From NCBI GenBank assembly GCA_951799425.1, contig OX637392.1:34765593-34829592 (forward strand): 64,000 bases of DNA. The letters are read 5' to 3'. A model generated the notes under the pieces. The model saw nothing but the letters and a program-made list of their open reading frames with translations. It did no database searches and was not told the DNA's origin. The translations under genes and the position numbers were made by a program. Shown piece by piece: positions 1,693 to 63,286 of the stretch. Source of the stretch: Ilex aquifolium (Eukaryota > Streptophyta > Magnoliopsida > Aquifoliales > Aquifoliaceae). Positions within the stretch are counted from its first letter, which is position 1, and each line of letters opens with the position of its first letter.

Positions 1693-1997
1693 TGTAACAC
1701 CCCGCATTTTCGTTTATATATGTATATAGATATATACTAAATAATAGTTGTAAAAATGTTGATATAGTATAACTCGAGGAAATAATATTTGAAATTTAGT
1801 TTTAGTATGTGAAAATATGAAATTTTATGTCCTAGAACTTGTACTAAATAGGTTTGAGGTAGAAATATATGTTGGAGAGGTTTGAGATGGTTTTGGAAGA
1901 GATTGGAATGGATTAATAATGAAAAATAAAGGAAGTAGGCAAATCTGGGATCAACTAGCGGTAGTAACTACCGGTAGTCAAGTGCCCAGTGTACTCG

Positions 1998-4132
1998 TGT
2001 AACACCCCAAAACACACCCTGGACGACATTACAATCTAAAACCATTCATATCATGAGAGCACTGATATAATCCATTCATAAATAAGACTTCATAAAAATC
2101 ATTCATAACATTTACATCATTATCCCAAAAGAATATGCCATCTTTGGCCTTTACATTTCAAAAATCAACTAATGAAACGCAGCGAAAATAACAAAAGAAA
2201 ACTAGACATCACAAGGTTCAAAATGAATATCCTAGTCTAGAACAAAAGTAAGTGACATCTCTAAAGGTCCCACTCGGGATCCAAATATCCCTCTAGTGAA
2301 GCCTCTCCATGGCCCGGCTCATTAGCACCGAGCTCATCATCTGGCACCAAATTTGAAAAATGTTCAACTGTAGGGGGTGAGCACAAAGCTCTGTAGAAAA
2401 ATCCTCTCAAACTCAAACAAGGTTTAGAAAAGTATATAAAACAAGTCGGTCTCATTTCACAATTAACATATATAAGATTTGAAGTAAAAACAAGGACATT
2501 TAAACAAATCTCAAGTTTAAGCCGTAATAATAATCCAGTGAAAGGTTGTATGTTGGTTCATCCCCGTACCATGTATGTTGATTGCTTCTCATGAATCTAC
2601 CCAACGATTATACCTAGTCCACCAATCACTATCACAATCACAAATATTTTAGGAAAGGGCGTCTACCATCCCAATGGCAGTGACGAGTCCCTTCCCAGGA
2701 AAAGTATACTATCCCTTGTTCGAACTCCAGTGAACGATAGTGGTCGCATTACCAAATGACAACCCACTACAAGTGTTAGGAAACCATCTCACCCCTACTG
2801 GGATAGACTAACCTCTAACACTCTACGGCATCTCTCGATGACAATCCAAGTCCATCACAACAACCATACCAATGAGGAAACCAAAATATTCTCATTTTAT
2901 AAGCATATCTCAAAAATCCCCAAATTTAGAATGAGACAATTTCAATAACCCATTTTAAGAAAAATACAAGAGATCATTCCACATCATTTTATCACTCAAC
3001 ACAAAGCACTATAGTTTCGAAATCAATAATAAAGGAAGAAGTTTGGAAGAAAATCCATCCCTCTCCAAAACTAGGGTTTTAAAGCAAGCAAAGAGATTTC
3101 ATGGGTATTCAACCCTCACTTTGTTTAAATCATGTAATCTTTACCGAAAGACTAAGAGAGGATGATTTCATATCATATATATAACATTTAGGGCAAAACA
3201 TACATATATAAATAAGCCCTAAGCCTCAATGAAAGAATTTGAGAAGAACCCCCTACCTTGCTTCTTTAGTTTTTGAGTGAAGAAGATGAAGATTGGATCT
3301 TCTTCAATATGCAAATCTACCCTTGATCTTGTGTTTTCCCTTTCTTTCTTCCTCTCTAAACATTTCTAGGGTTATAAATGTTGAAATGGGGCTTATAAGA
3401 GTGTCCTTAAGTATTTATAGGGGAAGAATTGGCCTCCTGTGCGCGATTCTAAAGTTCAGAATTCGCAAGTCACGTTCGAACGTCATTGGCGTTCGAACGT
3501 TCGTCACTCCCAGTACTTTTGTTTTTCCATCAGACAAAGAGTACTGGGACGCACTTTCGTTCGAACGTCATTGGCGTTCGAACGTCACTAGTGCAAATTA
3601 TTGATTCACGTTCGAATGTCACTTTGGATTTCGAACGTTGGTTGCTCCCAGTACTTTTGCATTTTCATCAGAGCTCTGCAGACACCAAAGTACTGGGACT
3701 CCCTCACGTTCGAACGTCGATTCACGTTCGAACGTCATCCCAGTTTCTATTGAAACTTCCAGTGAAGTGTTGGCCTATTTAGAGATTGATTTGGAAAATT
3801 TTCATGAAATACACTTTTGTAGCCCTGGATGTCTACTATCTACTGTCAAAATTTCAGATCAATAGGAAGTCAGGATAAAAAGTTATGATCCAAACACTAA
3901 GGCAGTGTCTAAAATTCTTCTACCTAAACTATCTCTAGAATGCGATTTCACTCCAAAATACTTCCAACTTCTTACGACATACACTATTACCTCCACTAAC
4001 CTTTTATTTCTACTATTATCATCTACGTAGCTCATGCATACATCATTACATATATATTCGCATTTAAAAAAAAACATAATTACGTTACTATATATCTATA
4101 TACATATATAAAAGAAAATGCGGGGTGTTACA
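1998..4132 (-). repeat. 3' LTR of young Tekay element
   Basis: It is bounded by TGTAAC..TTACA in either reading and matches 10945-13079 at about 98%. On the minus strand it holds a U3 region shared with the other Tekay LTRs, then a cluster of ACGTTCGAACGT palindromes, a TATA box, and an R-U5 region about 1.3 kb long. The open frames within it are shadows of the palindrome cluster, not genes. Confidence 0.95.
3412..3736 (-). promoter_or_regulatory. LTR promoter: eight TTCGAA palindromes upstream of a TATA box
   Basis: The palindrome ACGTTCGAACGT or close variants occurs eight times between 3472 and 3736, mostly in pairs with 4-7 base spacers. Between pairs lie copies of CCAGTACTTTTG followed by CATCAGA, and reversed AAAGTACTGGGAC. 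On the minus strand a TATA box (CTATAAATAC, 3412-3420) follows the last palindrome by about 50 bases. Every palindrome centre is a CpG. Known fact: TATA boxes in LTRs mark the RNA start. Inference: the cluster is an enhancer or protein-binding array. Confidence 0.75.
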
Positions 4133-4150
4133 ATCCACCCCCCTTAAAGA
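4133..4150 (-). other. Polypurine tract of young Tekay element
   Basis: On the minus strand CTTTAAGGGGGGTGGAT ends exactly at the 3' LTR. It is the expected plus-strand primer of reverse transcription. Confidence 0.85.
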
Positions 4151-4808
4151 AAGTTTCGTCCTCGAAACTTACCTCAAGTAGCGAACAAATATGGATACTT
4201 CTCCCGCATTTCTTGCTCCAGTTCCCATGTAGCTTCCTCCACTCCATGGTGTTGCCACAAAATCTTCACCAATCGGATAACTTTGTTGCGAAGTACTTTC
4301 TCCTTGGCATTGAGAATTTCTACCGGTTGCTCTTCGTAGGTTGCTCCTTCTTGGATTTCAATCTCCTCCAAGTTCACGACTGGAGTTGCATCCGAGTGAC
4401 ACTTTCTCAATATGGACACGTGGAACACGTCATGTACTCCGGATAGCTGGACTGGTAGTTGAAGTTGATATGCCGCCTTGCCTACCGCTTTGATTATCTC
4501 AAACGGTCCGGTATATCTTGGCGCTAATTTCCCCTTCTTGCCGAATCGAAACACGCCCTTCTTGGGTGACACCTTGAGAAATACGTAGTCTCCCACCTTG
4601 AATTCTATGGGTCTTCGTCGGTGGTCCGCATAGCTCTTCTGTCTACTTTGCGCCGTGCGTAGCCTCTCTCGGATGAGTTGAATCTTCTCCGTAGTTTCTC
4701 GAACAATGTCCGGTCCCAACAAACTACTCTCGCCGGCTTCTAACCAACACGTCGGTGATCGGCATGGTCTTCCATACAATGCTTCATATGGTGCCATCCC
4801 AATACTTT

Positions 4809-6874
4809 TGTAACACCCCGCATTTTCGTTTATATATGTATATAAATATATATTAAATAATAGTGGTAAAAATGTGGATATGTGTAGTGATGGTAGGAAT
4901 AAACTAGAGATGCAAATTAATTTGGAAGTTGAAGTTTTGAAGGTGTGTAAGCTTGAGAAGAGGGATTAAGTAAGTTTCTAAATGGATTTAGGTCAAAATA
5001 AGGTTTCCATTGAGTCCGGAAGGTCGAAAAACCTTGGGAGAGGTGATATGGGGTGTATTAGAAGTTAGAAAGTATTTTGGAGTTAAAACACATTTTAGAG
5101 AAAATTTGGGTATAAAGGATTTTGGACACTGTCTACTATTTCGATCATAACTTTTTATTCTTAATTTCAAATGATCTGAAATTTTGACAGTAGATAGTAG
5201 ACATCTAGGGCTACAAAAGTGTATCTCATGAAAATTTTCCAATTCGACCTCTAAATGGGTCAAAAATGCACTGGAAGTAGAAGTAGAAAATCTAGGTAGT
5301 GACTACCGGTAGCCAAAATCAGCTACTGGTATCCAATGGTCTAGTGTGTCCGAGCTACCGGTAGCCACTGTAAAAATCCGAATTTTTTTAGTTCGCGAAC
5401 CCTCGATTTTTCCCCCACTATAAATACATCCTCTCACCTCCTTAGCCTTCATTACACACCTTAAAACCCTAGAAAACATTAGAGAGAAAGAGGGGAAGAG
5501 AAAAACACAAGATCAAAGGTGAAAAACAAGGAATTAAAGGTTTGATTCAAGATCAAAGCCCTAATTTTTCCAAGAACATTAAGGTAGGGGTTTTCTCTCA
5601 CTCTCTTACATTGAGGCTAGGGTATTTATATATGTATATTTTGGCTATCAATGGTATATATATGCTATGGAATCATCATCTCTTAGGCTTTTTGGCAAAG
5701 ATTTCATGTTTTACACAAAGTTAGGGTTTAATACCCATGAAATCTCTTCTCTAGTTTGAAAACCTTAGTTTTTGGAGAGTGATGTATTTCCTTCCTAAAT
5801 GCTTTCCGTATTATGGATTTTCTAAACCTTAGTGCATTGTGTTGGGTAGAAAAATGATGTTATTGTGATCTCATGTATTTTCTTTGTTGGTTGTGAAATT
5901 GTTACATGTTATACATTTTGGGGAATTTTGGATAGATGATTGTAAATTGACATAATTGTTGGAAGGATATTATTGGTTGGGTTGTTGGTGATGCAAATGA
6001 ATGAGAGGTTTCTTGTAAGAATGCTCACCCATTCTCAAGAGGTTCCTTGTAAGGATGCTTGAGAATCAATGAATGGAGGTGGAGGTTGCTCTTAAGTATG
6101 CCACCTACCGGAAGAATGGGGGTGGAGGTTGCTCTAAAGTATGCCACCTACCGGAAGAATTGTTGGGAATTGTTTATGGCCATTAATGTCAAGTTTTGAA
6201 TTATTGTAGTATTGTGGAAAATGGTTTCCTACAAGAACTTGTGGGAGTATGGGATTCCACAAGGTCTTGTGGGAAACCGGTTTATATTTCAGAAAAATGG
6301 ATATATCTTGGATCTTGGTTTCTTTTACTGTTCATTTAAATTACTGTCGCTACTTAAACTTGAGATCCATTTTAAAATGTCCCTGTTTTACTTCAAAGAT
6401 TATATATGCTATTTGTGAAATCAGACCGGCCATTTTATATACTTTTATAAACCTTGTTCAAGTTTGGGAGGAATGTTGCTACAGAGCTTAGTGCTCACCC
6501 CCTACAAACAACATATTTCAGGTCTTGGTATAGAGGAGGAGCTCGGAACTGACGAGCCGGAATATTGGAAAGCTCCTATAGGAGGGAATGTGGATCCCGA
6601 GATGGACCTGTAGAGACATAGCTTCCTTTGTAATAGACTTGAGAATTTATTTCGAAATCATTTGAAGTCTAGTTTCCTTTTGTTATTTCCGCTGCGCTAC
6701 ATTATTTGATCTTGGAATGTAAAGGCCAAAATGGGCCTATTCTTTTGGGGATCATGCTGTAAATATTATGGATGACTTTATGAATTCTTACTTATTGAGG
6801 GATTATTTTAGTGCTCTCATGATGTGAATGTTTTAGAATGTAATGCCGTCCAGGGTGTGTTTTGGGGCGTTACA
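4809..6874 (+). mobile_element. Solo Tekay LTR inserted in the integrase region
   Basis: A single LTR begins TGTAACACCCCGC at 4809 and ends ..GGGGCGTTACA at 6874, opposite in orientation to its host element. The bases ACTTT occur at 4804-4808 and again at 6875-6879, a perfect 5-bp target duplication. This shows an intact insertion later reduced to one LTR by recombination between its LTRs. It is 2066 bp long and close to the solo LTR at 61178, including two copies of a 42-44 bp internal repeat near 6074-6160 (that LTR has three). It must be younger than the 1998-13079 insertion. Confidence 0.95.
5303..5426 (+). promoter_or_regulatory. LTR promoter: ACCGGT palindromes, GTTCGCGAAC, TATA
   Basis: CTACCGGTAG lies at 5303-5312 and 5355-5364, with a one-base variant at 5323-5332. 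A further palindrome GTTCGCGAAC is at 5391-5400 and a TATA box TATAAATA at 5419-5426. The same order and spacing recur at 61672-61795 and, in looser form, at 13085-13264. Confidence 0.75.
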
Positions 6875-10944: not shown

Positions 10945-13079
10945 TGTAACACCCCACAACACACTCTGGACGACATTACATTCTAAAATCATTCATATCA
11001 TGAGAGCACTAATATAATCCATTCATAAATAAGGCTTCATAAAAATCATTCATAACATTTACATCATTATCCCAAAAGAATATGCCATCTTTGGCCTTTA
11101 CATTTCAAAAATCAACTAATGTAGCGCAACGAAAATAACAAAAGAAAACTAGACATCACAAGGTTCAAAATGAATATCCTAGTCTAGAACAAAAGTAAGC
11201 GACATCTCTAAAGGTCCCACTCGGGATCCAAATATCCCTCTAGTGAAGCCTCTCCATGGCCCGACTCATTAGCACCGAGCTCATCATCTGGCACCAAATC
11301 TGAAAAATGTTCAACTGTAGGGGGTGAGCACAAAGCTCTGTAGAAAAATCATCTCAAACCCAAACAAGGTTTAGAAAAGTATATAAAACAAGTCGGTCTC
11401 ATTTCACAATTAACATATATAAGATTTGAAGTAAAAACAAGGACATTTAAACAAATCTCAAGTTTAAGCCGTAACAATAATCCAGTGAAAGGTTGTATGT
11501 TGGTTCATCCCCGTACCATGTATGTTGATTGCTTCTCATGAATCTACCCAACGATTATACCTAGTCCACCAATCACTATCACAATCACAAACATTTTAGG
11601 AAAGGGCGTCTACCATCCCAATGGCAGTGACGAGTCCCTTCCTAGGAAAAGTATACTATCCCTTGTTCGAACTCCAGTGAACGATAGTGGTCGCATTACC
11701 AAATGACAACCCACTACAAGTGTTAGGAAACCATCTCACCCCTACTGGGATAGACTAACCTCTAACACTCTACGGCATCTCTCGATGACAATCCAAGTCC
11801 ATCACAACAACCATACCAATGAGGAAACCAAAATATTCTCATTTTACAAGCATATCTCAAAAATCCCCAAATTTAGAATGAGACAATTTCAATAACCCAT
11901 TTTAAGAAAAATACAAGAGATCATTCCACATCATTTTATCACTCAACACAAAGCACTATAGTTTCGAAATCAATAATAAAGGAAGAAGTTTGGAAGAAAA
12001 TCCACCCCTCTCCAAAACTAGGGTTTTAAAGCAAGCAAAGAGATTTCATGGGTATTCAACCCTCACTTTGTTTAAATCATGTAATCTTTACCAAAAGACT
12101 AAGAGAGGATGATTTCATATCATATATATAACATTTAGGGCAAAACATACATATATAAATAAGCCCTAAGCCTCAATGAAAGAATTTGAGAAGAACCCCC
12201 TACCTTGCTTCTTTAGTTTTTGAGTGAAGAAGATGAAGATTGGATCTTCTTCAATATGCAAATCTACCATTGATCTTGTGTTTTCCCTTTCTTTCTTCCT
12301 CTCTAAACCTTTCTAGGGTTATAAATGTTGAAATGGGGCTTATAAGAGTGTCCTTAAGTATTTATAGGGGAAGAATTGGCCTCCTGTGCGCGATTCTAAA
12401 GTTCAGAATTCGCAAGTCACGTTCGAACGTCATTGGCGTTCGAACGTTCGTCACTCCCAGTACTTTTGTTTTTCCATCAGACAAAGAGTACTGGGACGCA
12501 CTTTCGTTCGAACGTCATTGGCGTTCGAACGTCACTAGTGCAAATTATTGATTCACGTTCGAACGTCACTTTGGCTTTCGAACGTTGGTTGCTCCCAGTA
12601 CTTTTGCATTTTCATCAGAGCTCTGCAGACACCAAAGTACTGGGACTCCCTCACGTTCGAACGTCGATTCACGTTCGAACGTCATCCCAATTTCTGCTGA
12701 AACTTCCAGTGAAGTTTTGGCCTATTTAGAGATTGATTTGGAAAATTTTCATGAAATACACTTTTGTAGCCCTGGATGTCTACTATCTACTGTCAAAATT
12801 TTAGATCAATGGGAAGTCAGGATAAAAAATTATGATCCAAACACTAAGGCAGTGTCTAAAATTCTTCTACCTAAACTATCTCTAAAATGCGATTTCACTC
12901 CAAAATACTTCCAACTTCTTACGACATACACTATTACCTCCACTAACCTTTTATTTCTACTCTTATCATCTACGTAGCTCATGCATACATCATTACATAT
13001 ATATTCGCATTTAAAAAAAAATATAATTACGTTACTATATATCTATATACATATATAAAAGAAAATGCGGGGTGTTACA
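10945..13079 (-). repeat. 5' LTR of young Tekay element
   Basis: It has the same length and structure as 1998-4132. Many of the differences between the two are transitions, a number of them at CpG sites. Confidence 0.95.
12359..12682 (-). promoter_or_regulatory. LTR promoter: TTCGAA palindrome cluster and TATA (5' LTR copy)
   Basis: The eight-palindrome cluster runs from 12419 to 12682, with the TATA box at 12359-12367 on the minus strand. Two palindromes that are altered in the 3' LTR copy keep more of the consensus here, so the consensus can be read as ACGTTCGAACGT. Confidence 0.75.
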
Positions 13080-13084
13080 ACTCG

Positions 13085-13264
13085 GACTACCGGAAGTCAA
13101 CAGGTAGTCAAGTGCCCAGTGTACTCGGACTACTGGTAGTCAACATGTAGTCGAGTGCCCAGAATAGCCGAACTACCGGTAGTCATAGTTTAACTACCGG
13201 TAGTCACTGTAAAAATCAGACAATTTTAGTTCGCGAACAGCCGGTTTTTCCCCCACTATAAATA
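13085..13264 (+). promoter_or_regulatory. Old Tekay LTR promoter: ACCGGT palindromes, GTTCGCGAAC, TATA
   Basis: CTACCGGTAG occurs at 13173-13182 and 13193-13202, CTACTGGTAG at 13130-13139, and decayed copies lie near 13087 and, across the insertion, near 1965. GTTCGCGAAC is at 13229-13238 and TATAAATA at 13257-13264. A unit of about 50 bases with AGTGCCCAG repeats between the palindromes. Confidence 0.7.
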
Positions 13265-13820
13265 CTTCTTGCCATCCCCTTAGCCTTCATTACACACCTT
13301 AAAACCCTAGAAAACATTAGAGAGAAAGAGGGGAAGAGAAAAACACAAGATCAAAGGTGAAAAACAAGGAATTTAAGGGTGATTCAAGATCCAAGCCCTA
13401 GATTTCCAAGAACATCAAGGTAGGGGTTTTCTCTCACTCTCTTACATTGAGGCTAGAGTATTTATATATGTATGTTTTGGCTATCAATGGTATATATATG
13501 CTATGGAATCATCATCTCTTAGGCTTTTTGGCAAAGATTACATGTTTTGAACAAAGTTAGGGTTTAATACCCATTAAATTTCTTTTCTAGTTTTAAAACC
13601 CTAGTTTTTGGGAGAGTGATGTATTTCTTCTTAAATGCTTTCTCCATTATGAACTGCAAAAACCGTAGTTGTTGTGTTGGGTATAAAAATGATGTTATTG
13701 TGATCTCATGTATTTTTCTTAGTTGGTTGTTGAACTTTACATGTTATATTTTGGGAGATTTTGGATAGAGGATTGTAAATTGAGAAAAATATTGGAATTG
13801 TATGCTTGGTGGGGTTGTTT

Positions 13821-15205: not shown

Positions 15206-15399
15206 GTAAAATTTGGGGTTTGAATGAGTTTAATGAGTGAGATGAATGAGAGAGTTTGATTTGGAGAAGTGGGATGTTAAGGAAGCTTTTCAGAAGTTAG
15301 AGAGAAAAAATGAGGAGTGGCTTTGGTTTTGAAATGCAAAAGTGAGGTAAAAATAGGTCTTCCTACTTTTTATCACCGAAATTTTCTATTTTGACCTTC

Positions 15400-15490
15400 A
15401 ATCAGTTGATCGATTAGTTCAATCGGTTGAAGTCAATTTTCTCCTTTGCTCAACCAGTTGGAAATGATTGTTCAACCGGTTGAACTTAAT
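15400..15490 (-). promoter_or_regulatory. CAACCGGTTG-type palindrome cluster before ORF3 of Athila C
   Basis: Four CpG-centred or CpG-derived palindromes occur: TTCAACCGGTTGAA near 15470, CAACCAGTTG near 15454, CAATCGGTTG near 15420 and CAATCAGTTG near 15402. An AT-rich TATA-like stretch (gataaaaag) follows on the minus strand near 15370. It matches the position of the clusters before the third gene in elements A, B and D. Confidence 0.6.
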
Positions 15491-19154: not shown

Positions 19155-19296
19155 ACCGCTCGAGCGAGCCTCCTAACTACTCGTGTAGTCTGCACAGATC
19201 TAGGCAAGATAGGTTTTAAAGACGCAATTTTTACATTTGAATACTCATTTTTCTCACCTTGCATTCCCATGGCTAACCCATGTTCCTTTATATATT
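19155..19296 (+). promoter_or_regulatory. GCTCGAGC palindrome and TATA before ORF3 of D
   Basis: ACCGCTCGAGCGAGC at 19155-19169 is CpG-centred and matches the palindromes of the LTR of the same element (22001-22089). A TATA-like TTTATATATT is at 19287-19296, about 85 bases before the ORF3 start. Only one clear copy is present, so confidence is moderate. Confidence 0.5.
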
Positions 19297-27890: not shown

Positions 27891-28322
27891 GGTCTCCGTT
27901 GTATTCCCAATTCTCTGTCAATGAACCCTCAATGTGTATAAGATTTATATGTGTGGGTGAGTGTCACTCTCACTCGGGTTCAATGCAAGAAATGGGAGAC
28001 GGAATGATGTGGTGGAATGAAAGGAATGAAATGTGTGTGTGTGTGTGTGTGAACAAAAGTGCTCCCCAAGTGCAGGGAGTCTTTTGAGTGTCATGTGTTC
28101 ACTTGGAGTTTGGTTTTGGTAGAAAGGGTAAAGTGTAAAAAACTTTTGTTGTTTGAAGTTTGGTTTGTGATTGTATCTTGATAAAAAATGAAATGGAAAA
28201 TGTGTTGGTTAATTCGAAGGGTTCATTCCAATGGGAATGCCAACTCAACTCGAGACCTTCCCCCAATGGTGTCTAGATGTTCGATTGATTTGTGGGAAGC
28301 TCGGGACGACTATGGAGGTGAG
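27891..28322. other. Unassigned spacer with GT microsatellite
   Basis: A (GT)n run lies at about 28030-28052. The stretch joins the cut edge of chromovirus E to the 5' LTR of Athila A. I see no supported gene. Confidence 0.45.
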
Positions 28323-37214: not shown

Positions 37215-37533
37215 ACGTTCGAACGCCAGGTGACGTTCGAACGTTAGCTGCTTGCAGTTCTCAACCCCTGATGAAGTTTCTGATGATACTAAAAAGTACT
37301 GGGACCTCAGCTTGTTCGAACGACAATAGACCGTTCGAACGAGATTCACGTTCGAACGCCAATAGACCGTTCGAATGAAGAGAACCTACAGTACTTTGAC
37401 CTCTGACAGAACTCAAAAGTACTGAGAGCTCACCACGTTCGAACGACAACCACGTTCGAACGATCTGTTTAAAATCCTTCTAGACACGTTCGAACGTTAC
37501 CCACGTTCGAACGTCACGACTCAGGCTATAAAA
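37215..37533 (+). promoter_or_regulatory. Palindrome array and TATA before Athila A ORF3
   Basis: About ten copies of ACGTTCGAACGT or shortened forms lie between 37215 and 37514, mostly in pairs 5-8 bases apart. AAAGTACTGGGAC-type spacers sit between pairs, as in the Tekay LTR promoter at 3472-3736. TATAAAA is at 37527-37533, 13 bases after the last palindrome and about 210 before the ORF3 start. This suggests an internal promoter giving a separate ORF3 transcript; that is inference. Confidence 0.72.
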
Positions 37534-37740: not shown

Positions 37741-38834
37741 AAATGCCAAGAGTCAACCTCCCTGCCAGGCGCAACCCAAACACCCAAGAGCCTAATTTCG
37801 TCGAGGAGGTGGTGGAAGGAAGAGAAGGAATGCCACCACTTACGCGAAGATACGATAAAACCCGTTTCCCCACAGCTCTAAAAGCTGACAGGTACGACAA
37901 TTTTTACTAAAAACATGATGTGGTTTGTGAAAGGGGTGTTGTTTTAACTGATTTTGTTGAATTGGGTATAATGGCGAAGATGGAAAGGAGGGGTTGGGTC
38001 TTGTATTTGCAAAACGGCGGAGAGGCCGTAGTTGACTTGGCGAGGGAGTTTTACTCCAACGCCAAAATAGTTAATGGATCGTTAAGGAGTTATATGAGGG
38101 GAATCCACATCGATGTGGATGAAGATTACATAAGAGAAATTAGGCAAGAAGTGCCTTGGGTCCCAAGTCCCGCTTTTCCCCCGAGAAAGAACGTAGCAAT
38201 GAATGTCGTGGGGAGGGAGCTAACGGGAATGCCTAACTTCTCTTGGACTGGAAAGAGATTTTTTAGACAAGGGGAACTCACCTACAAATATAAAATGTTG
38301 AACTTGATTGCGGTTGCCAACTTTGCTCTGCTAGGAAGAAAGAATGAAATCCTCCCCGACATGGCTCGGTTGTTGTATGCAATTGGGAAAGGGCAAAGCA
38401 TCGACCTCCCCTCCCTAATTTTGACCGAGATGAAAAAAGGGTGTGATGTGAAGTGAAATTCGCTTCCCTTCGGCACCCTAGTGACGGAATTATGCAAAGA
38501 CCATGGGGTTAGGGTGAAGCCAGAAATGGAAATTCAATAGCCAATGGGGCCACTGAACAAGGCTTCCTTCCGGAGAAGCCAAGGTCATAGTGGTGGCCAA
38601 GCGGCCAGACAGGAGATGCCCCCTACCCATGGAGTGGACGAGGTGCAAGAGGAGCTTGATGCGGAGGAGGAGAGAGAGATGGAGGAAGAAAGAGATCAGC
38701 CACAGGAGGCAAGACCTAGCACCAGGACCCAACGATCTTTACCAGACATCATGCTTAGCATTGAAGCTAAGCAGGATGAGATTCTTAGACTTTTGAGGGG
38801 TGGACCTGGTGGAGATGGTGGACTTGAAGAGTGA
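37741..38834 (+). pseudogene. Athila A ORF3 ('putative plant transposon protein' type)
   Basis: Starts MPRVNLPARRNPNTQ, basic. The core at about 37950-38450 includes MERRGWVLYL, VDLAREFYSNAK and an LPSLILTEMKK segment, matching the conserved family found after pol in plant Athila-like elements. The C-terminal third is strongly acidic (EEEREMEEERDQ near 38680) and ends in a possible amphipathic helix and a glycine tail. There is no clear membrane anchor, so an envelope role is not supported. Function unknown. About two or three breaks. Confidence 0.75.
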
Positions 38835-40668: not shown

Positions 40669-40684
40669 TTTAGGTTGGGGAGTG
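40669..40684 (+). other. Polypurine tract of Athila A
   Basis: GGTTGGGGAGTG directly precedes the 3' LTR start TGATTAG at 40685. Confidence 0.8.
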
Positions 40685-42557
40685 TGATTAGCACTTAAAA
40701 TTAGCATATTACTATGTCGTTTTAAGATTAATTGTACTTTGATGGAGTTTAAGTGATGTCATTTCAGGCCCTAAACTGAACAAGGACTCAAGAACAACAA
40801 GTACCACACTTGAATGCAACACCAGCACATTAGAGCACAAAATTGGAGAAGCTTGGAGCACAGGCAGAACATTCGAATGCCAACCCACGTTCGAATGGCC
40901 ACATTGAACTGTAGCAGACCCAACTGCTAAGAGAAGGCATGTTGCAGCTAGGAAAGAAGACTGAAGCTCTGAGGCACTTGAGTATCACGTTCGAACGCCA
41001 ACTCACGTTCGAACGTGCACTTGAGTTGATTGAAGACCACACTACTGCATAGAGTGTGGAACTAAACTTCACAGAAGACCAACAGATCACTCGAGTGAGA
41101 GGATTAGAGCACATCTGGCGTTCGAATGCCCATAGTGCAAAGACAGAAGAAACGTTCGAACGACAGACAACGTTCAAACGTTCATAAAGCAAAAACAGAA
41201 ACAACGTTCGAACGCCAACTCACGTTCGAACGTTCTCCACAGACTAGCAGCAGAGTAGTTGGTTTTTAACTTGGACTTGGGCGGCATACACTATTCCTTC
41301 ACCCCCTCTTGTCTCCTCCTCTTGCCTATAAATACTCCCATTGTTGGAGAGCTTAGGGGAGCCAAGTAGAGAGGTTGATGGAGGCTTAGACTCCCACTCA
41401 CATTATAGATTTAGCTTACATTTCCTTGTATGAAGTCTTTATTTTAGAGATTAGTTTGACTTTAGTCCAACATCTCTTTTCTTACTATAAAAGTAGTTTT
41501 ATGCTTATGTTTCCACTTACATGCATAGAAGGGAGTTAGTTCATCTCTTTGGTTGAGGAAGCAACCCTCCATTCCTTGGTTGAGGAAGCCACCCTCCAAA
41601 TGTGACTAGCTTTCTTCTACTTTTATTGTTTAGTTACTTCACTTCCATTGCTGGAGCTTCTTTCTTTCTTAGAGTAGTGAAACTCTTCCACTTTTCTAGA
41701 GTTTTACCAAAGCCGTGAAGGGTGGAACGTGATTCACTCATTCTTTGTTAAAGATTGGCTCCTTGTTCATTGTTATTTCATCTTTTGAGTCCTCTACTTG
41801 GAGGGATGATCATCATCCACTTTTCTAGCTTTACCAAAGCCATGAAGAGTGAGTAGTTTCTTATTCACTCTTTAGTAAGAGGAGAAAGGCATGTATAAGT
41901 TATCCGGGAATTATATTTGTGCACTGTTCTTATGTTTAACGTTTATTTCTTCTTGCTTATTGGATGATTGATTGCATCTAGCAAAGCTAAGGTACTTTGT
42001 ATAACCGTGGGCTCTTTCTATGACACAGATGACTCTTGCATAGAAAGACTCATCGGTTCAAGGCAAGTACCCCGGCTAGATCTTCATGACTACCCTTCAA
42101 TCCTCCCCCTTATTGTGCTTCATTTAAAGAATGGAATATTAATGTCATGATTGAATGTCTTGTAGAAACACTTGCTTTTTTGTAGACAGGTTAAGTCTCG
42201 GCACAAACAATTCTTGTAAACTTCTGGAAAGACATCGGAATCATGTTCTTAATTCTCACAGTCCATCTTTATCTTCCGATTAACTTGTTGTTGGCAAGGG
42301 AGTTAATTGAGTTATCAAGCATAAGTATAATTAACCGGATAATTAACTACATGTCCAGATCCTTGAACGAAAGAGTGAATCTTTTTCATTCGAGCTCATC
42401 TCATATTTTGTTAAGAAAATTCTCTTGGAAAAAATCTTATATTCTGTCCAGGAAATCTCACACCTCACAACAAATCTCAAGGGTTACAATCAATAGGTCT
42501 CCACCACTGCTTATCTAAAAAAATACCAACAAAAGTTCCCTGTGGATTCGACACCGA
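40685..42557 (+). repeat. 3' LTR of Athila A, cut near its end
   Basis: Homologous to 28323-30193 throughout. After about 42557 the match stops and a chromovirus fragment begins. Confidence 0.9.
40868..41334 (+). promoter_or_regulatory. Athila A 3' LTR promoter: ACGTTCGAACGT cluster and TATA
   Basis: The same cluster as 28500-28972, with partly different decayed copies. TATAAATA is at 41327-41334. Taking both LTRs together gives the consensus ACGTTCGAACGT. Confidence 0.72.
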
Positions 42558-44546
42558 ACATTAAGATGTAGACTTCACCATTGAGTTGCACCACGGTACA
42601 TCCCTATTGCTATGACGCCATATAGAATGACACCTGCAGAGATGCAAGAGCTCAAGGTCCAGTTGCAAGAATTGTTAAATAAGGGTTCCATTATGCCGAG
42701 TACTTCACCTTGGGGTGCTCCAGTGCTATTTGTCAAGAAGAATGACAAAACCCTTCGGCTATGTATAGACTACCGGCAGTTGAATCGAGTCACCATCAAG
42801 AATAGGTACCCATTGCCGTGGATTGATGACTTGTTTGATCAACTGATGGGGGCACAGGTCTACTCCAGGATAGCTATGCACACAAGATACCATTAGTTAA
42901 GAATTAGGGAGGCATATATCCCTAAGACGGCATTTAGAACGTGATATGGGCATTTCAATTTCACTGTGATGCCATTTGGATTGACAATGAACCAGCGGCA
43001 TTCATGGACCTTATGCGTAGGGTGTTCCAACCCTATATTGATCAGTTGGTCATGGTCTTTATTGATAATATCCAGATCTACTCCAAGTCTGAGGGGGAGC
43101 ATGATGATCACTTGAGGGTTGTTATCCAGCCCTTGAGAGACCATCAGTTGTACGCCAAGTTCAGCAAGTGTGAATTTTGGTCGATAGAAGTGAAGTTTCT
43201 GGGGCACGTGGTGTCGGCTTCGGGTGTTTCAGTTAACCAGGAGAAGGTTGACGCAGTTATGAGTTGGGAGAGGCCCAAGTCAGTCTTCGTGATACGTAGT
43301 TTCTTGAAATTGGTGGGATACTATCGGAGGTTCATTGAGACTTCTCCCGACTAGCTGCACCTATGATGAGATTGACCAAAAAAGAGATCAAGGTTTAGTG
43401 GGATGACTCAAGTGAGAGGGTATTCCAGGAGTTGGGGAGGAGGCTTACTTCAACACCTAATCTGATAGTTTCGGAGAGGGGACAAAGGTACAAAGTTTAT
43501 TGTGATGCCTAAAAGGACAGACTTGGATGTGTATTGATGCAGTCCGGGAGGATGGTGGCTTATGGTTCTCAACAGTTAAAGTGCCACGAGCAAAACTACC
43601 CCACGCATGACATAGAGTTGGCGGGTGTCGTCTTTCCCTTAAAGTTATGGCTCCACTATTTGTATGTAGAGACGTTTGAGGTGTTTTCAGACCACAAGAG
43701 TCTAAAGTACATCTTAACTCAGCAATACCTCAATATGAGGCAACACAAGTAGAGTCTTTGGAGGACTATGACTTCATTTTGCATTATCATCCCAGTAAGG
43801 CAAATGGGGTGGCTGATGCACTCAGCCAGAAGTCACGGGGAGTCTTGGCTAGTACAGTTTCTCGGGAGTGCCTATGATTCAAAATTAGGGCACTTTGGGG
43901 AGTTTGGTGACTACACCTTCTCTACTGGGCAGAGTGATTGAATCATAGGGACATGACACTGAGATAATGTCCATCAAGGAATGTGTACAGTCGTGTATAG
44001 GTGATGAGGGTTGGGCCATTCATACAGATGGTAGTCTTATTTACGCTAATGGTAGTCTTCGATTCAGAGGAAATGTTGTGGTTCCCCAGTCTACGGATCT
44101 GAGAGAGGAGATCCTTAGGGAGTTTCATTGCTTCTGTTTTGTTGTGCATCCATGTGGCATGAAGATGTATCATGATCTTCGCCGCCAATATTATTGGAGC
44201 GGGATAAAGAGACAAGTCATGGACTTTGTTAGTAGATGTCTGACATGTCAGCAAGTCAAGACTGAGCACTAGAGACCAGTAGGGTTGCTCCAGCCTTTGG
44301 AGGTGGCTGAGTAGAAGTGGGAGCACGTCACTATGGACTTTGTGATACACTTTCCACGGACTTCACCTAGACATGATGTGGTGTAGGTGATAGTGGACCG
44401 GCTTACGAAGTCGGCTCACTTTTTTGCTGTGCAGATAGCCTTGACACTGGAGGAATTCTGTAGATTGTATATATAAGAGATAGTCCGGTTGCATGGAATA
44501 CCCATATCTATAGTATCAGATAGTCCGATTTGAAGGTTCCCTACTA
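42558..44546 (+). pseudogene. Chromovirus pol fragment (RT, RNase H, integrase)
   Basis: RT begins near 42612 ([38 protein letters not shown]). RNase H lies about 43480-43850 and integrase from about 43960 (CLTCQQVKTEH near 44250) to 44540. Both ends are cut: the left at the truncated Athila A LTR, the right at another Athila LTR. It resembles Tekay/Del pol but is distinct from the young copy. Around ten breaks. Confidence 0.85.
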
Positions 44547-45044
44547 CTGATTAGTACTTAAAATTGACATGTTATTATGACATTTTAAGACTAATTGTAC
44601 TTTAATGGAGTTTAAGTGATGTCATTTCAGGCCCTAAATTGAACAAGGACCCAAGATCAACAAGTACCACACTTGGATGCAGCACCAGCACATTAGGGCC
44701 AAAATTGGAAAAGCTTGGAGCACAGCCAAAACGTTCGAACGCCAAATCACGTTCGAACGTCCACATTGCACTGTAGCAGACTCAAATGCTGAAGAGAAGG
44801 CGTGTTGCAGTTAAGAAAGAAGACTGGAGCTCTGAAGCACTTGAGTGTCATGTTCGAACGCCAACTCATGTTCGAACGTACACTTGAGTTGATGGAAGAC
44901 CAGACCACTGCAAAGAGTTGGAACTGAACCTCACAGAAGACCACCAGACTACTCGAGTGATAGGGTCAAAGCAAATCTGGCGTTTGAATGCCCTCAGTGC
45001 AAAAACAGAAGAAACGTTCGAACGCCCTTAGTGCAAAAGCATCA
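44547..45044 (+). repeat. Shortened Athila A-type LTR
   Basis: Starts TGATTAGTACTTAAAATTG and follows the A LTR through the palindrome cluster (copies at about 44732, 44749, 44852, 44870 and 45014). It then jumps to the last bases of an LTR just before the primer site. About 1.4 kb containing TATA and R-U5 is absent. Confidence 0.8.
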
Positions 45045-48914: not shown

Positions 48915-49086
48915 TTCTACCGATAGAATTTATAATTAAAACCGGTGGGTTCTGAACAGAGAGTTGTTCTACTGGTAGATCGAGTCTAATGTACCAGTAA
49001 GTCTTATATCTTAGGCGTTAAAACAAGGGTTTTTACAAGAATTTCATAGGTTTTCATCAAATTGAAATTTCCCTCTCCCTTTAAAA
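48915..49086 (+). promoter_or_regulatory. ACCGGT-type palindromes before Athila B ORF3
   Basis: TTCTACCGATAGAA (48915-48928), an ACCGGT core at 48941, TTCTACTGGTAGA (48967-48979) and GTACCAGTAAG (near 48991) match the palindromes of the 3' LTR of this element. A weak TATA-like TTTAAAAG is near 49079. ORF3 starts at 49285. Confidence 0.6.
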
Positions 49087-49284
49087 GCTCTGACTTCTCT
49101 CTAAAAACCTTAGAAACTCTCTCCAAGCTTGGGCATCGATTTGCATCTCCTATTGCTGAGATTTTTGTGTGATTAGTGACTAATGGCTTCATAAGGTATG
49201 AAGAGTTCTCCCTCTTTTGATTTGATTTCTTGGGTATGTTTTTTGCTTTTGTCATTGAGTATTGTGGGGGTTGCTTTGTGGGCA

Positions 49285-50607
49285 ATGGCTCGCACAAAGC
49301 TGTCCAATGTCACTGATAAGAAAAAAAAAAGGAATGGGGAGGCCAATAACTAAAACTTCAGTAGAACCTTGGAAAAAGAAGCAAAAGGTTGATCACTCAA
49401 CCTCTATAGATGTCAAGAATGTGACTTGCGAGAGACAAGTGGATAGATATGGGTTGGTCTTCTTTAGGGTTATCCAACAAATCATTGAGCGAGGTTTGGA
49501 GGTGTGGTTCAAGGAGGTGAAGGGGTTTGGTTTGGCATTGTGTCAAGAGTTCTATAAGGGACTCAATACTATTGATAGTGATTTACAACTACTCAGGACA
49601 ACACTGCAGGGGAAGGTCATTCATGTGACACCTGTGACTGTGGGTGAGATGTCGAACTATGATCGATCTGAGCCTGATAAGATTGATTTCCCTCACCCCA
49701 ATTTCCAATCCAAGACCTTAGAGTAGTATGTAGCCTCGATGTATGAGGAGGGTAAGACTTTCACTGAAAAGAAACAGTGGGAAGTTTGATTGGGGAGTAC
49801 CGCCTAGCCAATAAGGTTTTACCCTACAATGTAGACTCGAAGGGATCTAAGAAAGAGCCATGTATTTATAAGATAGTTTTGGTTTCTGAGTTTCTAGCAA
49901 GCTTTTGTATTGACATAGCATTTTTAGTATGGCGGGTTATGCGAGATTTTGCTGCCACCGTGAAGATGAAGGCGAATATGCCTTTCGCTTACATGGTGAC
50001 TAGGATGTATGTGAACGCTAGGGTGAAGCAGACAGCGAATGATGTATTGTGGCCTACAAAGATTGGACCCATTGGCCACCAGAGCAAGAGTAAGAGTGTC
50101 ATAATATCAAGGGGGACCGAAGTTATAGAGGCTACCACTTCCACTACCCCTACCAATACTACCACTTTAGATCCACCTACTACTACTTCTGCTACCCCTA
50201 CTGCTGTACCACCACCATTCACCTCAGGAATGACATTGACTCAGAAGGTTATTAGGATAGATGAGAGAATGAATGGTGTGGAGAGGTATGCCCTGGACAC
50301 AAGGCAAGTTATGGAGAGATGCGAGGGGAAGATGGGCTGGCTTATGACTGATATGTGGAGACGGTTAGAGCATACTTTTCATGGTAAGCCCATTACACTA
50401 GTGTCATATTCAAGACCCCAAACATCGTCCACTAGGGAGGATGTGGCACTGGATGTGGAGGATAGTGAGGCTGAAAGGGATGAAGAAGAATTGAGACTGG
50501 TGCGGAGAGTGATGGTGGAGATGAGAATGGAGCTGAGGATGATGATGCTGATGCTTGATAGTTTTTGTTTTCAGTTTTTGAGTTTAAGTGTTAGGAATTT
50601 TGTATAG
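49285..50607 (+). pseudogene. Athila B ORF3 ('putative plant transposon protein' type)
   Basis: Starts MARTKLSNVTDKKKK, basic and likely nuclear. A middle part with ERGLEVWFKEV and GLALCQEFYKGL matches the family core. The second half (about 49780-50400) has conserved-looking helices (VWRVMRDFAATVKMK), a threonine/proline linker, and an acidic C-terminus (DVEDSEAERDEEELRL). No transmembrane anchor typical of an envelope is clear. About four breaks. Confidence 0.7.
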
Positions 50608-50856: not shown

Positions 50857-52010
50857 TGAGACATCAATATTGCATTATTTTATAGCTTAACACATTCACT
50901 TTAGGCTTGTTAACAAACGAACTTGCTTCACTTATTACATATTGCATCTTATGCTTTGATAGTTTGATTTATGTGAAAAGGTTGAGATTAAGCATTAATA
51001 GGATGACAAGAGATCATTTGGGGTGAGTTTGCTCGAGAGAAGATGAAGCCGGGAGCCTTAGAAATATTATGTAGAAAAGAGAAGTTATACCAGTAGGTGT
51101 TGTACTGGTAGGAAGGCAGAAAGATAAAGGTTCTACCGGTAGTATGTCATTTCTACCAGTAACATGAGTTACAGTATTTTGCCCTTTTTCATCAGAGATG
51201 TCTTGCTAGTATGTGGAACATGTTCTAATGGTAGGAAATGTTATAGTACTTTTGCCAGAGGAATCCTACCGGATGTTTTATCGGTATGAAAAATCATAGA
51301 AGTTTCAGATATTTTATCAGACAAAGTTCTACCGGTAGGTAAAGATGTTCTATAGGTAGGTTGTGTTATAGAGGGAGTTGTTGTTGGTAGGTGAAGGTAG
51401 ATCTCCACGGGAAGCTAAATTAAAGATCAGATCTCCTCATATCTTTTGCGGATTCTCAACCAATTAAAGAAGGATATAATTTTGGTGAAGATATTTACCA
51501 AATATCTGAATATTCTCCTTCCAACCAAAATAAATAAAAGACCCTTTGGGGAATAGAGATATCACGTTTAGGAGCTTTTCTTCTACTTTTTTATGTTCTT
51601 TACATTACAAAGTTTTAGGGTTATTTTATAGAGTTTTGCATTATTCTTCTTTTAAGTTCAGTTCTTTCATTTGTTCGAACAATATTTACATTCAGTTGTT
51701 TTTACTTTCGAAACCTTGTTATTTACATTTAGTTTTTCAATACAAGCAATCAATTTCAATTCAATCTTTACCTTTCTGAATTCAATTATGTTTTCTTTAA
51801 TGCTTTATGTTATTTCCATTATCATGAGTGTGTAGTCTTCCTCAATATAATATGAGGAACGAGTCCTAACCTTTGAAGTAGGGTATATGCTTTAAACTAG
51901 GGTTTTAATGTTTATGTGATTGATTGAATAAGTTATGTTTTTTAAAATCTAATTGGTTTGCATGGTTCTTGATTATCTGTATACAATTAAGTTTGGTATA
52001 AATAATTAGT
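50857..52010 (+). repeat. 3' LTR of Athila B, right end cut
   Basis: Starts TGAGACATCAATATTGC, comparable to TGATTAGCAC of A. It includes the ACCGGT palindrome cluster, an AT-rich TATA-like ATAAATAAAAG near 51530 and a long R-U5 region. It runs into a minus-strand copia fragment near 52010, so the end is approximate. Confidence 0.6.
51085..51540 (+). promoter_or_regulatory. Athila B LTR promoter: TTCTACCGGTAGAA-type cluster
   Basis: About nine copies from 51089 to 51360, the best at 51131 and 51327, and decayed ones near 51089, 51102, 51151, 51223, 51265, 51278 and 51348. Spacers contain CAGTATTTTGCCC..CATCAGA and AGTACTTTTG, as in the TTCGAA arrays of Tekay. A TATA-like sequence is at 51530-51540. 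Confidence 0.68.
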
Positions 52011-53825: not shown

Positions 53826-53990
53826 CTTGTCTGCTGCAAACACACATACTAAAAAACACACACACATTCACTGCACACACATAGTTACACACACCCACAC
53901 ACAAACACACAAACACATGCACTGCACACACACCCACCCACCCAACCACCTACACACATGCACGAATTGCACACACACACACACACATTT
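53826..53990. repeat. (CA)n-rich microsatellite
   Basis: Irregular CA repeats with interspersed CACCC and CATGC units. The apparent open frames there are low-complexity. Confidence 0.9.
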
Positions 53991-53999
53991 TATTAATGA

Positions 54000-54690
54000 A
54001 ATTTAATTATTCTATTTTTTCAATTCGATTATTTAGCAGTTTTATTTATTTATTTATTTATTTTGATCAGATGTTATTGTTCAGTTATTGTGTTATTCAA
54101 TTTATTATTGTTCACTTATTGTTATTCGATTATTTATTAGTTATTGTTCTTTTTTTTTATCAAATGTCATTGTTCAGTTATTGTGTTATTTAATTTGTTA
54201 TTGTTCACTTATTGTGATTCGATTATATATTTGTTGTTGTTCAAAAAAATTTTTTTTTTGATAAGATGTTATTGTTCAGTTATTATGTTATTCAATTTAT
54301 TATTGTTCACTTATTGTGATTGTTCAATTATTATTATTCGATTATTCGATTATTTATTAGTTATTATTATTTTTTTTTGATCAAATGTTATTGTTCAATT
54401 ATTGTGATTCGATTATTTATTTATTATTGTTCTTTTTTTTTAACAGATATTATTGTTCAGTTATTGTGTTATTCAATTTATTATTGTTCACTTATTGTTA
54501 TTCTATTATTTATTAGTTATTTTTTTATCAGATGTTATTATTCATTTATTGTGTTATTCAGAAATTATTTTTTTGGTCAAAAGTTATTGTAGACTTATTG
54601 TGTTATTCAATTTGTTATTGTTTACTTATTGTAATTCGATTATTTATTTGGTGTTGTTCTGTAATTTTTTTTTTTTTGCCTTGTATTATT
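54000..54690. repeat. T-rich tandem array (TTATTGTTCA-type units)
   Basis: About nine degenerate units of 60-75 bases built from 'ttattgttcacttattgtgattcgattattta'. Multiple overlapping open frames rich in Phe, Tyr and Ile are products of this composition. Confidence 0.85.
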
Positions 54691-54814
54691 CAATTGATGT
54701 AAACATCAATTTTTTTTGTATTATGTTAACTATTCTAGTGGGTCACGATAATAATTTGACAATGTTAAACAATGTCATATAGTCTGATATTTTTTAAAAA
54801 AATGGTTATGTAGG

Positions 54815-59084: not shown

Positions 59085-59137
59085 TGTGAGCTGTGTTTCA
59101 TGTGTACACTTAATGAAAGGGAACCGTTAAGGAACTG

Positions 59138-60520: not shown

Positions 60521-60620
60521 AACTACAAGAATTTCAGGTTTTGTCGGCATTTATTAGCCAACGTTTGTAACAAGTGCCGGCGACGTTTTAATATTCTAGC
60601 GTTCATTGAGAACGTCACGT
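60521..60620. mobile_element. Possible CACTA transposon end
   Basis: AACTACAAGAATTTCAGG is close to the CACTACAAGAA terminus of plant CACTA (En/Spm) elements. It is followed by subterminal-like motifs GTCGGCATTTATTAGCC and CGGCGACGTTTT. The other end is not in the window, so this is tentative. Confidence 0.4.
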
Positions 60621-61097: not shown

Positions 61098-61115
61098 TGG
61101 TGTCGTCTGTGGGAA
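61098..61115 (+). other. Primer-binding site of the Tat element
   Basis: TGGTGTCGTCTGTGGGAA corresponds to the TGGCGCCGTCTGTGGGAA sequence common right after the 5' LTR of plant Tat elements. The tRNA is not identified with certainty. Confidence 0.65.
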
Positions 61116-61177
61116 CGACTGTTCCTGTTACAAATATACTGATTTTCTTCAGTAATTGATGGTCTCTACGCGTAATA

Positions 61178-63286
61178 TGTAATACCCCGCATTTTCGTTT
61201 ATATATGTATATAGATATATAATAAATAATAGTGGTAAAAATGTGGATATGTGTAGTGATGGTAGGAATAAACTAGAGATGCAAATTAATTTGGAAGTTG
61301 AAGTTTTGAAGGTGTGTAAGCTTGAGAAGAGGGATTAAGTAAGTTTCTAAATGGATTTAGGTCAAAATAAGGTTTTCATTGAGTCCGGAAGGTCGAAAAA
61401 CCTTGGGAGAGGTGATATGGGGTGTATTAGAAGTTAGGAAGTATTTTGGAGTTAAAACACATTTTAGAGAAAATTTGGGTATAAAGGATTTTGGACACTG
61501 TCTACTATTTCGATCATAACTTTTTATTCTTAATTTCAAATGACCTGAAATTTTGACAGTAGATAGTAGACATCTAGGGCTACAAAAGTGTATCTCATGA
61601 AAATTTTCCAATTCGACCTCTAAATGGGTCACAAATGCACTGGAAGTGGAAGTAGAAAATCTGGGTAGTGACTACCGGTAGCCAAAATCAGCTACCGGTA
61701 GCCAATGGTCCAGTGTGTCCGAGCTACCGGTAGCCACTGTAAAAATCCGAATTTTTTTAGTTCGCGAACCCTCGATTTTTCCCCCACTATAAATACATCC
61801 TCTCACCTCCTTAGCCTTCATTACACACCTTAAAACCCTATAAAACATTAGAGAGAAAGAGGGGAAGAGAAAAACACAAGATCAAAGGTGAAAAACAAGG
61901 AATTAAAGGGTTGATTCAAGATCAAAGTCCTAGATTTCCAAGAATATCAGGGTAGGGGTTTTCTCCTTTTCTCTTACAATTGAGGCTAGGGTATTTATAT
62001 ATGTATGCTTTGGCTATCAATGGTATATATATGCTATGAAATCATCATCTCTTAGGCTTTTTGGCAAAGATTACATGTTTTGAACAAAGTTAGGGTTGAA
62101 TACCCATGAAATCTCTTTTTATGTTTCAAAACCCTAGTTTTTGGAGAGTGATGTATTTTTTTCTTAAATGCTTTCTTTATGATGGATTTTCGAAACCTTA
62201 GTGCTTTGTGTTGGGTAGCAAAAATAATGTTATTGTGATCTCATGTATTTTCTTGGTTGGTTATTGAAAATGTCACATGCTTAAATTTGGGGATTTTGGA
62301 TAAATGATTGTAAATGGAGATAAATATAGGGATTTTATTTTTGGTTGGGTTGTTTGTGATGCAAATGAGTGGGAGGTTTCTTGTAAGAATGCTCACCCAT
62401 TCTCAAGAGGTTCCTAAGGATGCTTGAGAATAAATAAATGGGGGTGGAGGTTGCTCTTAAGTATGCCACCTACCGGAATAAATGGGGGTGGAGGTTGCTC
62501 TTAAGTATGCCACCTACCGGAAGAATGGGGGTGGAGGTTACTCTAAAGTATGCCACCTACCGGAAGAATTGTTGGGAATTGTTTATGGCCATTAATGTCA
62601 AGTTATGAATTATTGTAGTATTGTGGAAAATGGTTTCCTATAAGAACTTGTGGGAGTATGGGATTCCACAAGGTCTTGTGGGAAACCGGTTTATATTTCG
62701 GAAAATGGATATGTCTTGGATCTTAGTTTCTTTTACTGTTCATTTAAATTACTGTCGCTACTTAAACTTGAGATCCATTTTAAAATGTCCCTGTTTTACT
62801 TCAAAGATTATATATGCTATTTGTGAAATGAGACCGGCCATTTTATATACTTTTATAAACCTTGTTCGAGTTTGGGAGGAATGTTGCTACAGAGCTTAGT
62901 GCTCACCCCCTACAAACAACATATTTCAGGTCTTGGTATAGAGGAGGAGCTCGGAACTGACGAGCCGGAATATTGGGAAGCTCCTATAGGAGGGAATGTG
63001 GATCCCGAGATGGACCTGTAGAGACATAGCTTCCTTTGTAATAGACTTGAGAATTTATTTTGAAATCATTTGAAGTTTAGTTTTCTTTTGTTATTCCGCT
63101 GCTAAGTTACGTTTGATCATTTGAGATGTAAATGCCATATCTTGGCTTATTCTTTTGGGATGATATTGTAAATTTTATGGATGATGAATGGAAAATTTTT
63201 CTTATTGATGGAATTATCTTAGTGCTCTCATGTTGTGAATGGTCTTAGAATGTAATGCCGTCCAGGGTGTGTTTTGGGGCGTTACA
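61178..63286 (+). mobile_element. Solo Tekay LTR inside the Tat gag
   Basis: Begins TGTAATACCCCGC at 61178 and ends ..GGGGCGTTACA at 63286. The 5-bp target duplication TAATA is perfect (61173-61177, 63287-63291). It is 2109 bp and very close to the solo LTR at 4809-6874, from which it differs mainly by an extra 42-44 bp internal repeat (three copies, 62440-62570). Confidence 0.95.
61672..61795 (+). promoter_or_regulatory. LTR promoter: three CTACCGGTAG, GTTCGCGAAC, TATA
   Basis: CTACCGGTAG is intact at 61672, 61692 and 61724. GTTCGCGAAC is at 61760-61769 and TATAAATA at 61788-61795. The spacing is identical to 5303-5426, where one of the three palindromes is changed. Confidence 0.78.

What the first reader, a model, noticed from the sequence alone, without database searches (positions are those of the whole stretch)
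1960..61795. Family-specific arrays of CpG-centred palindromes upstream of LTR promoters
Seen: clusters of 10-14 bp palindromes lie upstream of a TATA box in eight LTRs and in four places before post-pol genes. The palindromes differ by family (ACGTTCGAACGT, CTACCGGTAG, CAACCGGTTG, GCTCGAGC-type), but all share a CpG at the dyad and appear three to ten times. The LTR of chromovirus E (23574-24990) lacks them. Known: dimeric DNA-binding proteins prefer palindromes, and CG is the symmetric methylation site in plants. Inference: these are binding arrays for a dimeric, perhaps methylation-sensitive factor controlling the elements. I know of no description of such arrays in Athila and Tekay.
Basis: partly seen in the sequence, partly recalled or inferred. 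Interest (0 to 1): 0.9.

Follow-up and report, generated by a model that had tools for sequence, protein, structure and literature searches.

The report
Swappable palindrome arrays at retrotransposon promoters
Two unrelated kinds of plant jumping gene carry, just in front of their promoters, tidy rows of one short mirror-image DNA word taken from a small set of related words, which look like landing sites for a paired protein, perhaps one that the jumping genes make themselves to escape silencing.

The parts
1998..4133 (-). Tekay-type LTR A1 (T5 array)
   Evidence: 98.4% identical to 10945-13080
10945..13080 (-). Tekay-type LTR A2 (T5 array)
3473..3734 (-). T5 (CGTTCGAACG) array in LTR A1; last palindrome centre 58 bp before TATA
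12420..12681 (-). T5 array in LTR A2
4809..6874 (+). Tekay-type LTR B1 (T1 array), inside element A
   Evidence: 91.8% to 61178-63286
5303..5364 (+). T1 (CTACCGGTAG) array of LTR B1
13087..13203 (+). T1 array of LTR B2, apparently cut by element A (other sites at 1955-1977)
61178..63286 (+). Tekay-type LTR B3
61672..61733 (+). T1 array of LTR B3
28322..30196 (+). Athila-type 5' LTR
   Evidence: 95.7% to 40684-42559
28526..28870 (+). T5 array of the Athila 5' LTR
40684..42559 (+). Athila-type 3' LTR
40888..41232 (+). T5 array of the Athila 3' LTR
44732..45024 (+). T5 array of a truncated third Athila LTR
37216..37513 (+). T5 array of the Athila post-pol promoter; TATA at 37527, ATG at 37743
37911..38456 (+). 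PF20167 (Transposase_32) post-pol open stretch behind that array (a stop lies just before it)
   Evidence: E 2.8e-16
48917..49000 (+). decayed T1-like sites before an old post-pol gene
49259..50607 (+). two open stretches of an old PF20167-type gene; the first is 37% identical to the T1-element protein (127 aa), 42% to T2 (90 aa), 24% to T5 (70 aa)
   Evidence: Pfam E 0.11 and no hit
51087..51359 (+). decayed T1 array behind that gene
15399..15482 (.). decayed CAACCGGTTG cluster (1 perfect, 3 with 1-2 mismatches)
   Evidence: type not enriched genome-wide
19157..19166 (+). single CGCTCGAGCG, before a PF20167 relic at 19886-20365
   Evidence: Pfam E 0.0014, below cut-off

Best explanation
The arrays are homotypic binding-site clusters for a protein that binds as a symmetric dimer to a 10-12 bp site with a 5-bp half-site starting at the central CpG. 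They end mostly 50-60 bp (Tekay LTR), about 98 bp (Athila LTR) or 18-86 bp (Athila post-pol) before a TATA box and control those promoters. The most likely factor is the product of the Athila post-pol PF20167 gene, working like VANC of VANDAL transposons: it binds its own LTRs and its own internal promoter, opens or activates them and sets up positive feedback. Tekay-type elements, which lack such a gene in the one copy examined, carry the same sites and would be activated in trans. Shown: arrays, one type per LTR, place, replacement at a conserved place, sharing between lineages, PF20167 genes behind arrays of four types. Inferred: dimer binding, identity of the factor, direction of the effect, use in trans.
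Confidence: 0.5

Rival explanations
1. The arrays bind paralogous host transcription factors with related half-sites; element subfamilies switch between paralogs to change tissue or stress of expression.
For: Explains at once why Tekay, with no PF20167 gene found in element A, has the arrays and why lineages converge on the same palindromes without other homology (T1; Athila LTR versus post-pol T5). Host-factor use by LTRs is well established (ONSEN and Tnt1, recalled).
Against: Does not predict PF20167 genes behind the arrays of T1, T2, T4 and T5, nor their relatedness following the palindromes. I could not test host promoters or host factors.
Confidence: 0.3
2. The arrays act in RNA: neighbouring copies of one palindrome pair to form hairpins in the 3' part of the transcript (stability, dimerisation, small-RNA source).
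For: Two copies of a palindrome 7-9 bases apart are able to pair; Sirevirus palindromes are small-RNA hotspots (PMC5311732 passages, citing a paper not held).
Against: RNA pairing between copies does not require each copy to be self-complementary. Fixed distances to TATA within families and the second set before the internal promoter point to DNA. Not tested by folding here.
Confidence: 0.08
3. The arrays are neutral minisatellites spread by slippage with no function.
For: Array length differs between copies, often by about one or more 17-18-bp steps; tandem growth is evident.
Against: Neutral growth does not explain exact palindromy and CG dyads in five types, spacers that differ while the palindromes do not, location before promoters (177 against 0 sites), or the same words in unrelated elements.
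Confidence: 0.05

Closest known systems
Sirevirus repeated motifs (Ty1/copia; Bousios et al. 2010, PMC2829016; sections 9 and 19 read, other passages seen)
   Same: Family-specific palindromes, 8-32 copies per element, in the LTR upstream of TATA and again upstream of the post-pol (env-like) gene; CpG-rich. Some of them (in its Table 3: Vitis, Usier, Tnd-1) are also gap-free palindromes with a CG dyad, and nearly identical motifs occur in Sireviruses of distant species.
   Different: Other superfamily; 12 of 13 Sirevirus motifs have a CGG-CCG core, and the paper calls the motif absent from other Ty1/copia elements. In what I read there is no sharing with an unrelated lineage of the same genome and no swapping of types at one site of homologous LTRs. 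Here five types are found at one LTR place and are shared by two Ty3/gypsy lineages.
VANC / VANDAL sequence-specific anti-silencing (PMC5735166 passages; PMC10398659 abstract)
   Same: Element-encoded DNA-binding protein; rapidly changing motif arrays in non-coding regions; motif and protein differ together between families.
   Different: VANDALs are not LTR retrotransposons (VANA is a transposase); the VANC21 motif is the non-palindromic YAGTATTAY in one orientation; VANC has DUF1985 and DUF287, not PF20167. No binding is shown here.
Retand/TRP28 and Grande accessory proteins (PMC11963269 passages)
   Same: Ty3/gypsy elements with a post-pol gene proposed to bind DNA and regulate the element.
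   Different: Antisense genes of another lineage and domain; no palindrome arrays reported in the passages seen.

Membership tests
Sirevirus-type repeated motif arrays | Repeated palindromes in the LTR upstream of TATA | tested here: met
   Tekay and Athila LTRs; not every copy shows a TATA box
Sirevirus-type repeated motif arrays | Further copies upstream of the post-pol gene | tested here: met
   Athila type: 20 of 20, L031
Sirevirus-type repeated motif arrays | Carrier is a Ty1/copia Sirevirus | tested here: not met
   window pol ORFs run RT, RNase H, integrase (Ty3/gypsy order); so it works like, but is not, a Sirevirus motif
Sirevirus-type repeated motif arrays | CGG-CCG core (12 of 13 published motifs) | tested here: not met
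   T1-T4 have CCGG at the dyad, T5 has TCGA
VANC anti-silencing system | DUF1985/DUF287 domains in the protein | tested here: not met
   Pfam lists PF20167 in 14 of 15 homologues and neither DUF
VANC anti-silencing system | VANC21 fold | tested here: inconclusive
VANC anti-silencing system | Dense motif arrays in non-coding regions of the encoding element | tested here: met
VANC anti-silencing system | Binding to the motif and loss of methylation | not testable with these tools
   needs EMSA or ChIP and bisulfite data
Simple satellite expansion | Repeats not confined to promoters | tested here: not met
   in 40 Tekay LTRs 177 sites in bases 1-450 after the anchor, 0 in 451-801; the rest of the genome was not sampled at random

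The most novel reading that the evidence does not exclude
The post-pol gene of Athila-type retrotransposons (perhaps the 'env-like' gene of the literature; recalled, not tested) encodes a VANC-like, homodimeric, sequence-specific anti-silencer whose palindromic half-site changes with the protein. Each subfamily has its own protein-palindrome key. Tekay-type elements without the gene repeatedly take over the current key by replacing the array in their LTR, and so free-ride on Athila's anti-silencing. This would make a plant env-like gene a transcription regulator, and create molecular parasitism between element lineages by motif.
Probability: 0.35. Interest if true: 0.95.

Novelty: new variant of a known kind. 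Interest (0 to 1): 0.85.

Why it matters
How plant LTR elements escape silencing, and what the post-pol gene of Athila-type elements does, are open questions. A discrete, readable palindrome that sits beside the candidate gene and is shared by an unrelated lineage makes both testable by a single binding assay. If right, it links three separate observations (Sirevirus palindromes, VANC anti-silencing, plant env-like genes) and gives a natural set of related protein-DNA specificities.

Tried and rejected
Methylation protection of palindromes: no difference in CpG change between ten LTR pairs (19 of 188 against 7 of 66; the eight pairs outside the window were taken as pairs from strand and distance alone). 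Per base, palindrome columns changed more often than others (27 of 670 against 116 of 8198), as expected from their CpG content. Symmetry beyond the core: at +-6 above shuffles in Tekay T2 (46 of 87 against 24), Athila LTR (57 of 127 against 48) and post-pol (34 of 122 against 27.5), not in Tekay T1, T3, T4, T5; nothing consistent beyond (+-9 in post-pol only), and the occurrences are related. Single-step chain of half-sites: the five types are connected by single symmetric changes (random 64 of 200000), but with columns shuffled among the five it is 9778 of 47709, so this is weak; the eight-type version includes CAACCGGTTG, since found unenriched, and CACTCGAGTG, never counted genome-wide. 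Stepwise point mutation between types: periods differ by type (13/16/31, 20/43, 22, 17-18), so re-growth or replacement is likelier. Shared spacer homology: Tekay T5 and Athila post-pol T5 share 27 columns (0 of 500 shuffles) and Tekay T3 and L155 T3 15 columns (2 of 300 in both copies tried), but Tekay and Athila T1 do not (eight comparisons, 18-298 of 300), nor Athila LTR with post-pol or with Tekay T5. First structure model, of the 181-aa window fragment: pLDDT 40, not used. Foldseek: nothing at E <= 0.001, VANC21 not among the 50 rows printed. Sequence search of PDB: nothing credible. Protein homologues: 9, 4 and 14 hits, all labelled PF20167 except two unlabelled short ones; one is named, a Rhododendron molle hypothetical protein. 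Transmembrane (env-like) test of PF20167 proteins: strongest 19-residue hydropathy 1.27-1.93 in four proteins, ambiguous. Motif letters in papers: 103 papers hold at least one of six strings and 320 one of six others; of each the 30 listed were seen by title and start of abstract, and none is about a transposable element. The genome-wide composition-matched control GATCCGGATC did not complete.
Full report
What is there. In the window, CG-centred perfect palindromes of at least 10 bp are ninefold in excess of dinucleotide shuffles (55 against 6.1); GC-centred ones are not in excess, and AT- and TA-centred ones less than twofold. They cluster upstream of TATA boxes in eight LTRs and before a post-pol gene. 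The window is part of an unnamed 800 Mb genome, so I could count and sample copies. Each of the main words is strongly enriched against its reversed, GC-centred counterpart: ACGTTCGAACGT 12048/44, CTACCGGTAG 22728/353, GTACCGGTAC 51910/907, CTTCCGGAAG 23874/931, CGTCCGGACG 8992/134, CGCTCGAGCG 1179/32. Further CG-centred controls were not obtained.

One place, five words. The Tekay-type LTRs A and B of the window are homologous on both sides of the array but carry different palindromes. To sample without regard to the array I used a 20-mer upstream of it, GACAGTAGATAGTAGACATC, which occurs 1213 times, and fetched 40 and then 11 copies from the first two contigs. All 51 have an array, of one of five types: T1 CTACCGGTAG (15), T2 GTACCGGTAC (26), T3 CTTCCGGAAG (5), T4 CGTCCGGACG (2), T5 CGTTCGAACG (3). 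Every copy has at least two sites within one mismatch of its own type (two copies have a single perfect one), and no copy holds a site of a second type, even with one mismatch. In the first 40, the first perfect palindrome lies 113-125 bases after the anchor start in 38 (exceptions at 137 and 156), and the last lies 57-59 bases before TATAAAT in 8 of 12 T1, 4 of 4 T3 and 1 of 2 T5, or 50-53 bases before a TTTAAAA or TATAAG in 15 of 20 T2; in both T4 and one T2 no such box was found. In 22 closely related subfamily-A copies the distance, worked out from the positions, is 58 in 20, 75 in one, and one lacks the box. Because the flanks are homologous, a constant distance is partly inherited; what it shows is that the array changes while its borders do not. 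CpG density is 0.058 per base in the array zone and 0.0028 downstream. A tree of the flanks of the 40 needs 5 (left flank) or 7 (right flank, both) type changes, against at least 13 in 200 shuffles: types are inherited in clades, with some repeated switches.

The same words in another lineage. Athila-type LTRs, sampled by another 20-mer (1462 places; 20 fetched from the first contig), carry T5 in 20 of 20, and in 18 of 20 the last site, counting up to two mismatches, lies 97-100 bases before a TATA box. Twenty of 20 Athila post-pol promoters carry T5; these were chosen from the 40 scored matches to the window copy (of 928 candidates) and so are close relatives. The last perfect site is 18 bases before the place of TATA in 10 of 20, 35-86 in the rest. 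Spacings peak at 17-19 and 34-36, with others such as 68, 79 and 112. With palindromes masked, the LTR and post-pol arrays of the window Athila share nothing, so the palindrome was kept or gained in both independently of its surroundings. Tekay T5 and Athila post-pol T5 do share spacer sequence, which points to transfer of a module. At C1:5931-5943 kb two T1 arrays 12 kb apart lie in copies 99.8% identical over 1958 bases, which I take for the LTRs of a young element, and a third T1 array between them shares a 125-bp block at 96% with unrelated flanks. No TATA box was found near the outer pair, and the one behind the inner array is about 155 bases away. Spacers of seven of nine array families, one copy each, contain ACTGGA or its complement (300 shuffles reached at most 6), a possible second site.

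The gene behind the array. Behind the T5 array of the window and the inner T1 array, L031, lies a PF20167 gene. From pattern coordinates alone I saw a similar three-array layout for T2 and T4 and wrote down the prediction that PF20167 genes would be there. Both were found: T2, 350 codons open, E 7e-23; T4, a 149-codon piece, 42% identical to the T5 protein, E 4.6e-10 but 40.1 bits against a cut-off of 45. An old element of the window fits in part: decayed T1-like sites at 48917-49000, then an ORF 37% identical to the T1 protein (127 aa), 42% to T2 (90 aa) and 24% to T5 (70 aa). Over 128 shared columns the proteins of T1-T2 (57%) and T4-T5 (43%) are closest, as are their palindromes (one half-site base); the four other pairs are at 22-29% with two to four differences. 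Four proteins in two clades is little, and descent alone could give this.

Mechanism. Exact dyad symmetry with differing spacers argues for a dimer on DNA. Whole-array identity and replacement argue for selection on recognition by something whose specificity changes. The gene next to the arrays is the best candidate, and VANC is the nearest known way of working: an element-encoded protein that binds motif arrays in its own non-coding DNA and removes silencing (PMC5735166, passages; PMC10398659, abstract). Tekay elements would then use the factor in trans. A family of host factors remains a serious rival, because Tekay and Athila T1 arrays share only the palindromes. Methylation sensitivity has no support: palindromic CpGs change after insertion as often as others (19 of 188 against 7 of 66), which also suggests that the perfection of the palindromes is a property of active copies, not of protection after insertion.

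What is known. Bousios et al. 2010 (PMC2829016; sections 9 and 19 read, other passages seen) described palindromic repeated motifs in Sirevirus LTRs upstream of TATA and before the env-like gene, called a Sirevirus-specific feature; some are gap-free with a CG dyad. A 2016 follow-up is not held and is known to me through PMC5311732 passages. So the arrangement is known in Ty1/copia. Searches for Athila or Tekay together with palindromes, promoters or cis-regulation (listings seen, 9 of 9, 20 of 21 and 15 of 26 rows) and for the motif letters (one listed rows each of 103 and 320) showed no description in these lineages, within a library that lacks most subscription papers.

Verdict. Confirmed observation; new variant of a known kind; the self-encoded factor with use in trans is the boldest reading that the evidence allows and can be tested by one binding assay.

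Noticed in passing
1955-1997 and 13081-13203: Element A (T5) seems to have inserted into the T1 array of LTR B2, splitting it; LTR B1 (4809-6874) in turn lies inside element A between integrase and the SH3-like end. Target-site duplications were not checked.
   Followed up: partly
13820-14387: 102-bp tandem repeat (5.6 copies) within LTR B2 with TCCTTATAAGGA twice per unit: a palindrome array with a TA dyad, inside a 221-codon open frame.
   Followed up: no
L155 (C1:60451-61050) and C1:60-192 kb: T3 arrays, many of about nine perfect sites, recur every few kb, several pairs 7.6-7.8 kb apart and apparently in both orientations near the end of contig 1; the one read (L155) resembles Tekay T3 LTRs in the palindromes and one 15-base spacer only. 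A third carrier lineage is likely.
   Followed up: partly
spacers of arrays, e.g. 3540-3650 and 37290-37430: ACTGGA/TCCAGT occurs in spacers of 7 of 9 array families: a possible second binding site.
   Followed up: partly
1127-1740 and 4085-4698: 614-bp inverted repeat, 93% complementary, one arm overlapping the inner edge of LTR A1.
   Followed up: no
19886-20365: PF20167 relic (E 0.0014) behind a lone CGCTCGAGCG site, a word 37 times enriched genome-wide: perhaps a sixth, older type.
   Followed up: partly
53988-54724: AT-rich nested tandem repeats with periods 31, 63, 85-93 bp.
   Followed up: no
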